Source: Anadara kagoshimensis
Taxonomy: Eukaryota > Mollusca > Bivalvia > Arcoida > Arcidae
Length of the DNA: 64,000 bases
Direction of reading: 5' to 3'
Assembly: GCA_021292105.1 (NCBI GenBank)
Contig: CM037857.1
Span: 27,452,677-27,516,676, forward strand
This document shows positions 45,841 through 46,262 of this stretch, piece by piece. A program made the position numbers and the translations under genes. The notes under the pieces were generated by a model. The model did no database searches. It was not told the origin of the DNA and saw nothing but the letters and a program-made list of their open reading frames with translations. How positions within the stretch are numbered: position 1 is the first letter of the stretch; every line of letters starts with the position of its first letter.

Positions 45841-46262
45841 GTGGTGTATTTGTAGTTGGTGCCCTGGGTGGAGCTTGTTCCCACTGCGTGGACTTTGTGC
45901 AACGAAGTGGGCTGCTTGCAGGTGGATTGTTGACCCAGGGATGTTGCAGGCCTGGGCTTATCGAGACCCTCAGTGGGTTTTGTGGCCGTCATCTCAGTGT
46001 TGTTGGTGGATTTGGTGTCTCTGTGTCCGGGGTTGCCCTGGGTGTTTTGACGTCTCGTGGTTCCGTGTTCCTTTCAACAGTTTTGATTACACGCGTGGCG
46101 GGTGTGTCTGGCTGGGTGGGGGGGGTGCTTGCCCTTCCGGGGCGCCCGGCCTCACTTCCCTGGTGGAGGTTCGCGAGTCTAACCTAACTTGTCAGTTCCG
46201 GGTTTTTTGCTTTGCTTCGGGGTTGTGGTTCGGGCATGGGTTGGTGTGTTTGCTTTTGACAT
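45841..46262 (+). mobile_element. Repeat B, full-length copy with extreme A-to-G substitution
   Basis: Reference copy for family B in this annotation; B coordinates below count from 45841 as 1. The family is about 420 bp, from GGTGTATTTG to GGTGTGTTTG. Aligned by hand against the full-length minus-strand copy 14588-15008 and the 3' part at 6777-6918, this copy has about fifty A-to-G differences and only a handful of all other kinds. Examples: CCAAAG becomes CCGGGT, GGAGCACCCAG becomes GGGGCGCCCGG, and ATTAGTATG becomes GTTGGTGTG. The result is a locally G-rich island. ORFs of 211 and 99 codons across it are by-products of stop codons losing their A. Confidence 0.85.

What the first reader, a model, noticed from the sequence alone, without database searches (positions are those of the whole stretch)
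45841..46262. A retroelement-like repeat copy with about fifty A-to-G changes on one strand
Seen: against the family B copies at 14588 (minus), 6777 (minus), 9928 and 30848, this copy replaces A with G at about fifty sites across 420 bp, with very few T-to-C, C-to-T or G-to-A changes. The bias stops at the repeat boundaries: the adjoining Penelope frame is ordinary AT-rich. Known: ADAR enzymes deaminate A to I in double-stranded RNA, which is read as G after reverse transcription. Inference: this is a genomic fossil of an RNA hyper-edited before insertion, implying that B moves through RNA and that the plus strand here is the sense strand. The alternative is a G-rich subfamily.
Basis: partly seen in the sequence, partly recalled or inferred. 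Interest (0 to 1): 0.85.

Follow-up and report, generated by a model that had tools for sequence, protein, structure and literature searches.

The report
Fossils of RNA-edited Penelope retrotransposon copies
Part of a jumping-gene copy in this animal genome bears a dense one-strand scar of A-to-G changes, best explained by an RNA-editing enzyme having altered the element's RNA before it was copied back into DNA, and more than a dozen other copies in the same genome bear similar scars.

Summary
Against the family majority, 45838-46259 shows 58 A>G of 93 A, 3 T>C, 0 C>T, 2 G>A. One correction: 'family B' is not a separate repeat inserted beside Penelope but the 3' part (end of the reverse-transcriptase frame plus 3'UTR) of the same Penelope-like element. 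The focal copy is most simply one 5'-truncated insertion: 45526-45842 has 0 A>G in 317 bp, about 293 nt are missing, then comes the edited part; both halves have about 4.1% other divergence. In this 1.1-Gb genome the focal copy ranks first of 40 scored hits of an A>G-converted probe. I count 14 independently edited insertions: 304 of 617 A are G inside edited spans, against 14 of 837 T>C. Spans differ between copies and show the ADAR-like 5'-neighbour order T>A>C~G (T/A v C/G p=6e-7); with A/G masked, edited copies lie nearest unedited ones. A T>C-converted probe found no mirror copies among 40 scored hits, so the copied template was the sense RNA. ADAR deaminase exons are present. No RNA data were available.

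The parts
45526..45842 (+). Unedited 5' part of the focal Penelope-like element copy (ref 2-318): reverse-transcriptase codons ending ..IGIPMGTNCAPLLVDLFLYSYKAEFIQNL
   Evidence: 95.9% to the family majority, A>G 0, T>C 2, C>T 4, G>A 3, transversions 4; translation; genome hits mostly at 96%
45838..45842 (+). Junction overlap CTTGT: matches ref 314-318 (CTTGT) and, but for one A>G, ref 612-616 (CTTAT); about 293 ref nt are absent between the two parts
45838..46259 (+). Hyperedited 3' part (ref 612-1039): end of the reverse-transcriptase frame and 3' untranslated region; 58 of 93 A read G
   Evidence: coding 33 of 54 A edited, UTR 25 of 39
46058..46060 (+). Former stop codon of the element (TAG in copy L032, ref 839-841) read as TGG
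   Evidence: stop placed ('approx'); sites 838 and 840 in the edited list; window place counted by eye
14585..15119 (-).
   Evidence: A>G 3, T>C 7, C>T 8, G>A 5
6784..6916 (-). 5'-truncated unedited copy (ref 910-1042); GAGCAAGCAAAC occurs just before it and again about 20 nt after its end (seen by eye)
20288..20420 (-). 5'-truncated unedited copy (ref 909-1041)
9940..10117 (+). Partial unedited copy (ref 652-829)
30797..31090 (+). Old unedited copy (ref 623-914), 75% identity
5706..5872 (+). Partial copy (ref 861-1029), A>G 5, C>T 5

Best explanation
The focal copy is a retrotransposed fossil of a Penelope-like element RNA whose 3' part (about 410 nt) was double-stranded and was deaminated by the animal's ADAR before reverse transcription. 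Steps: (1) a sense transcript of the element pairs with antisense sequence of the same family, from an inverted neighbour in a read-through transcript or from an antisense transcript (inferred; inverted pairs are present). (2) ADAR turns about 60% of the paired adenosines to inosine (inferred from the pattern). (3) The element's reverse transcriptase copies the edited sense RNA from its fixed 3' end, reading inosine as guanosine (inferred from one-strand A>G, fixed 3' end and 5' truncation). (4) A template jump, or a later deletion with short microhomology, joins this part to an unedited 5' part of the same element (the join is shown, its mechanism is not). The same happened independently in at least 13 other insertions.
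For: Spectrum: 14 independent insertions, inside edited spans, A>G 304 of 617 A; T>C 14 of 837; C>T 12 of 564; G>A 10 of 588; A>T plus A>C 13. One event: L003 has 24 A>G, all within ref 594-755, and 2 other changes in 861 bp. Density: A>G reaches 7 or more in 20 successive A in 9 of 94 alignments (7 insertions); T>C and C>T never exceed 5, G>A never exceeds 6. Context: 5' T .64, A .55, C .40, G .39 (T/A v C/G p=6e-7); 3' weak, G highest and T lowest, not significant. Published ADAR sites are likewise steered mainly by the 5' neighbour with G disfavoured (passages: PMC9989829, PMC5625713, PMC6651903). Strand: no T>C-edited copy among 40 scored of 797 candidates of a mirror probe; the 10 read have 2-6 T>C. 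Not a subfamily. Burst older than duplication: L002/L004 and L089/L094 share flanks and nearly all edits. ADAR exons with HAE (C8) and CTDK or CSDK..GAL (three loci). Inverted element pairs in fetched loci. Coding and UTR edited alike.
Against: No RNA data: edited transcripts were not seen. Context fits only in part: G is less depleted than in published sets (focal 5' G 11 edited, 8 not); C is as low as G here, whereas PMC6651903 counts CA as a strong target in molluscs; PMC5625713 reports downstream A in invertebrates, not seen here. Spans were defined from the edits themselves, which raises the edited fraction. Edits are significantly clustered within the copy in L003, L005, L009, L019 and L025 (p=0.0005), weakly in L010 (p=0.02), not in L001 or L002, where they fill most of the fragment. 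The pairing partner of no event is known, and many of the 28 inverted pairs are old and diverged. No clear target-site duplication for the focal copy. 17 other substitutions (4.05%) in the edited part mean a few A>G may be later changes. The copies were found by probes tilted to the 3' end and to A>G: a floor, not a rate.
Confidence: 0.92

Rival explanations
1. A G-rich subfamily, or gene conversion from one, with G states inherited.
For: Some sites recur (753 and 840 edited in 8 of 8 spans that cover them). L001 shares 16 of its 20 sites in the overlap with L003 (p=0.0009). Apart from the duplicated pairs, L002 and L087 share 21 of 52 sites.
Against: With A/G masked, 13 of 14 edited copies sit nearest unedited ones; spans and site subsets differ; L003 is otherwise 0.23% from the majority and L001 4.05%, so they are not sister copies. 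Recurrence is expected from neighbour and structure preference.
Confidence: 0.03
2. Deamination of DNA rather than RNA: ADAR or another adenine deaminase acting on DNA in RNA:DNA hybrids or on single-stranded DNA during insertion.
For: ADAR can deaminate the DNA strand of hybrids in vitro (recalled, no call).
Against: The DNA strand of a hybrid is the antisense first cDNA; its deamination would read as T>C on the sense strand, which is at background. Only an adenine deaminase on the sense second strand would fit, and I recall none in animals.
Confidence: 0.03
3. Error-prone copying of template A, as in diversity-generating retroelements, or WA-biased polymerase errors.
For: A is the mutated base and T/A 5' neighbours are preferred.
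Against: A>T plus A>C total 13 against 304 A>G; C- and G-preceded A still change at about 40%; edits stop inside copies (L003 594-755).
Confidence: 0.01
4. The edited 3' part is a separate insertion that abuts an older Penelope piece. This concerns the anatomy only and would leave the editing reading intact.
For: Sharp boundary; no clear target-site duplication under the one-insertion reading.
Against: Element order and orientation continue across the join (ref 318 to 612) with a 3-5 nt shared junction; both parts have equal non-A>G divergence, 13 of 317 and 17 of 420; no further match to the 1,043-nt reference between 46260 and the next hit at 56028.
Confidence: 0.12

Closest known systems
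ADAR A-to-G hypermutation of avian retroviruses (RAV-1; avian leukosis virus; Felder 1994, Hajjar and Linial 1995, seen only as cited in PMC8586724, passages)
   Same: Retroelement sequences with dense A-to-G changes attributed to ADAR
   Different: Viruses; here chromosomal copies of a Penelope-like retrotransposon, many independent fossils in one genome
ADAR hyperediting of repeat RNA in animals (PMC5625713, passages, which names Penelope in lizard as massively edited with over 40 K sites; PMC9989829, passages)
   Same: Editing of double-stranded RNA made by repeats, steering by the 5' neighbour; PMC5625713 notes that copies cut down to the 3' end favour pairing
   Different: Seen there in RNA; here fixed in genomic DNA; downstream-base preference of PMC5625713 for invertebrates (A) not seen here
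APOBEC G-to-A DNA editing of retrotransposons (recalled; mentioned in PMC2873906, passages)
   Same: Dense one-type change marking single copies
   Different: G-to-A on DNA; here A-to-G, and G>A is at background (10 of 588)
Penelope elements of the rotifer Adineta vaga (PMC3846280, passages)
   Same: 5'-truncated copies, inverted arrangements, microhomology-mediated internal deletions
   Different: That paper argued for an antisense template without deciding; the polarity of edits here points to a sense template in this family

Membership tests
ADAR hyperediting fossil | Large excess of A>G on one strand over all other changes | tested here: met
   304 of 617 A v 14 of 837 T>C in 14 copies; focal 58 of 93
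ADAR hyperediting fossil | ADAR 5'-neighbour preference (U, A over C, G; G disfavoured) | tested here: met
   .64.55.40.39; T/A v C/G p=6e-7, G v rest p=0.004; focal alone T/A v C/G p=0.005 but G not depleted (p=0.79)
ADAR hyperediting fossil | Dense groups confined to single copies, not shared by descent | tested here: met
   edges inside the copy clear in L003, not testable in L001, whose left edge coincides with the gap
ADAR hyperediting fossil | ADAR gene in the genome | tested here: met
   PF02137 exons at three loci, catalytic motifs (motifs recalled)
ADAR hyperediting fossil | Source of double-stranded RNA | tested here: inconclusive
   28 inverted pairs in fetched loci; no transcript data
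ADAR hyperediting fossil | Edited transcripts in RNA | not testable with these tools
   no RNA-seq held
Penelope-like element | Reverse transcriptase of the PLE/TERT group | tested here: inconclusive
Penelope-like element | Fixed 3' end with variable 5' truncation | tested here: met
Penelope-like element | GIY-YIG endonuclease (in part of PLEs) | not tested
   the 5' end of the element was not covered
G-rich subfamily | Shared G states together with shared other diagnostic sites | tested here: not met
   apart from the two duplicated pairs
APOBEC-type DNA editing | G>A excess on the sense strand | tested here: not met
   10 of 588
Diversity-generating retroelement mutagenesis | A replaced by any base | tested here: not met
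   A>T plus A>C 13 v A>G 304

The most novel reading that the evidence does not exclude
ADAR recurrently edits the RNA of a Penelope-like retrotransposon in this animal's germline, and edited RNA stays a working template, so the genome keeps a datable archive of double-stranded RNA pairing. Because the fossils found are all sense-strand A>G, the archive also says that this Penelope-like family copies its sense RNA, a point left open for Penelope elements in PMC3846280. In the focal copy the reverse transcriptase may have jumped templates at the edge of the edited, formerly double-stranded stretch.
Probability: 0.75. Interest if true: 0.85.

Novelty: new variant of a known kind. Interest (0 to 1): 0.8.

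Why it matters
It turns RNA editing, normally seen in transcripts, into a DNA record that can be counted and dated. It indicates that inosine-rich retroelement RNA can still be reverse transcribed and inserted in the germline, makes ADAR a mutator (perhaps a disabler) of retrotransposons, and gives an independent read-out of template polarity for a Penelope-like element. The test (A>G-converted against T>C-converted search of one family) is simple and can be run on any animal genome.

Tried and rejected
Choice of yardstick: counts were repeated against window-only copies, a majority of 25 young copies and a 1,043-nt majority; the A>G excess held in all. An alignment that rewards A>G gave 61 instead of 59, so alignment bias is small.

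Target-site duplication of the focal copy: none convincing. Pfam on the pieces was weak (RVT_1 0.021; 1.8e-5 on a longer intact frame); no PDB relative at E 1.

An A>G-converted search of ref 1-593, meant to test whether editing also occurs in the 5' part, did not complete. L010 (7 A>G in two small groups) was left out of the 14. Of the 40 rows, 13 were already held; of the other 27, eight with high A>G identity were fetched and 19 were not, so more edited copies may exist. Of the 40 rows, ten were read. L004 and L094 were dropped as duplicates of L002 and L089. In one search, four of 29 loci do not reach the 3' part, and L059 is the same place as L031.

Print check: ten literature searches were run; some searches asked about editing of retroelements, about retroviruses, about Penelope. 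Going by listings and the passages read, I saw no report of ADAR-type A>G clusters fixed in germline retrotransposons. Subscription papers are mostly not held, and I recall without a call G-to-A surveys that may mention A-to-G.

Full report
What was checked. The focal stretch was compared with relatives in the window and with copies from the genome in which the window lies (G000, 1,115,223,567 bases in 36 contigs; window at C1:27452677-27516676). Against window copies alone it shows 59-61 A>G, 11 T>C, 3 C>T and 3 G>A. Against a majority of genome copies it shows 58 A>G of 93 A, with 3 T>C, 0 C>T, 2 G>A and 12 transversions, plus a few small gaps. The other window hits are unbiased.

What the repeat is. 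Read in the sense direction, an older copy at 14585-15119 translates to ..DDFNFSIVNF..IPASPAYGVF..RYGRA.. and the piece left of the focal repeat to ..TIGIPMGTNCAPLLVDLFLYSYKAEFIQNL. One genome copy (L032) has an open frame of at least 516 codons holding both, with a weak RVT_1 match under the curated cut-off. 'Family B' is thus the last codons plus the 3' untranslated part of the same element. Copies share a 3' end (TTTGTTTTTGATT) and are cut at varying 5' points, as expected of an element primed at its 3' end.

Focal anatomy. Window 45526-45842 matches ref 2-318 with no A>G change; 45838-46259 matches ref 612-1039 and is edited; ref 319-611 is missing. The 5-nt overlap CTTGT fits ref 314-318 exactly and ref 612-616 (CTTAT) after one A>G, so the site at 45841 is ambiguous. 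Non-A>G divergence is 13 of 317 on the left and 17 of 420 on the right, so both parts are of like age and most simply one insertion. Whether the gap arose by a template jump or by a later deletion cannot be told, and no convincing target-site duplication was found.

Other edited copies. The first genome search scored 40 copies of 7,259 candidates; 30 came as loci and the other 10 were fetched. The A>G excess lies in a minority: besides the focal copy, L002 and L004 (34, 33), L003 (24), L025 (17), L005 and L009 (14), L019 and L010 (7); the ten fetched later have 1-5. A fully A>G-converted probe of ref 594-1041 ranked the focal copy first of 40 scored out of 5,070 candidates. Eight more copies chosen from that list carry 39, 17, 31, 12, 27, 24, 14 and 30 A>G with 0-4 T>C. 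L002/L004 and L089/L094 share flanks and are duplicated insertions; they share 33 of 34 and 28 of 33 edited sites, so the A>G burst was over, or nearly so, before the duplication. Leaving out the duplicates and L010, 14 independent insertions remain.

Controls. A T>C-converted probe of the same stretch gave 68-72% identity over its 40 scored hits of 797 candidates; the main copies in the ten loci taken from it have 2-6 T>C. Of 29 loci picked by the 5' half, 25 reach the 3' part, and their main copies have 0-5 A>G; over all 29, in alignments of 93% or more, A>G is 63, T>C 69, C>T 128, G>A 73 (L059 is the same place as L031). So the excess is one-sided and confined to a minority of copies. Over 94 alignments the densest group in 20 successive target bases is 15 for A>G, 5 for T>C, 5 for C>T and 6 for G>A. 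Within single copies the clustering is significant in L003, L005, L009, L019 and L025 (p=0.0005 each) and weak in L010; in L001 and L002 the edits fill most of the fragment.

Signature. In the 14 edited spans (61-412 nt, defined from the edits themselves) 32-67% of A are G per copy, together 304 of 617, against 14 T>C, 12 C>T, 10 G>A and 13 A>T or A>C. Edited fraction by 5' neighbour is T .64, A .55, C .40, G .39 (T/A v C/G p=6e-7; G v rest p=0.004); by 3' neighbour G .56, C .52, A .49, T .44 (none significant). The focal copy alone gives T/A 38 of 50 and C/G 20 of 43 (p=0.005) but no depletion of G by itself; L002 p=0.003; L003 p=0.006 with G 0 of 5. Passages of PMC9989829 (the 5' neighbour matters more; 3' G favoured and U disfavoured in most species) agree. 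PMC5625713 (upstream G strongly depleted, downstream A in invertebrates) and PMC6651903 (molluscan ADAR1: TA, CA and AA strong, GA weak, no strong downstream preference) agree in part: here C is as low as G, G is less depleted, and downstream A is not favoured. In the focal copy coding and untranslated A are edited alike, 33 of 54 and 25 of 39, which speaks against selection as the cause.

Why RNA and why the sense strand. Inosine in a sense RNA template becomes C in the first cDNA and G in the sense strand. An antisense template, or deamination of the first cDNA in a hybrid, would give T>C on the sense strand, which was not seen above background. The edited strand is the coding strand of the reverse transcriptase. 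For rotifer Penelope elements an antisense template was argued for but left undecided (passages in PMC3846280). The fossils here speak for a sense template in this family.

Source of double-stranded RNA. Within the fetched loci 28 opposite-strand pairs of the element share at least 100 element positions; L030 has two copies, 99.7 and 99.8% to the majority, facing each other 833 bp apart, but many of the pairs include an old copy of 68-80% (L031 and L059 are the same place and L002 and L004 duplicates, so a few pairs count twice). ADAR deaminase exons lie on C8, C18 and C19, with HAE found on C8 and CTDK or CSDK followed by GAL on all three (motifs recalled). The pairing itself is inferred.

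Age. Non-A>G divergence of the 14 edited copies runs from 0.23% (L003) to 5.9% (L087), so editing accompanied the family over a long time and until recently.

Verdict. An ADAR-hyperedited, retrotransposed fossil is by far the best reading. What is new, as far as my searches show, is the fixation in chromosomal DNA of many independent events in a Penelope-like family and the use of their polarity; the enzyme activity itself is well known. On checking, confidence was lowered from 0.93 to 0.92 because the neighbour preference agrees with the molluscan and invertebrate reports only in part.

Noticed in passing
L030, 1267-1894 and 2727-3393: Two nearly identical copies of the element in opposite orientation 833 bp apart, able to give a long hairpin if transcribed together.
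   Followed up: partly
ref 840 (window 46059): The A of the element's stop codon TAG is G in 8 of 8 edited spans that cover it, so editing removes the stop.
   Followed up: partly
L002/L004 on C18 and L089/L094 on C16: Edited insertions duplicated together with their flanks (3.3 kb at 97% and 1.4 kb at 95%).
   Followed up: yes
window 22001-23000: Strong GC skew (+0.29) in the composition profile, possibly a purine-rich strand or simple repeat.
   Followed up: no
window 52001-53000: Strong AT skew (+0.23) in the composition profile.
   Followed up: no
C8 about 31.89-31.90 Mb, C18 about 0.405-0.429 Mb, C19 about 25.70 Mb: Three separate sets of ADAR-family deaminase exons; which are catalytically active was not tested.
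   Followed up: partly
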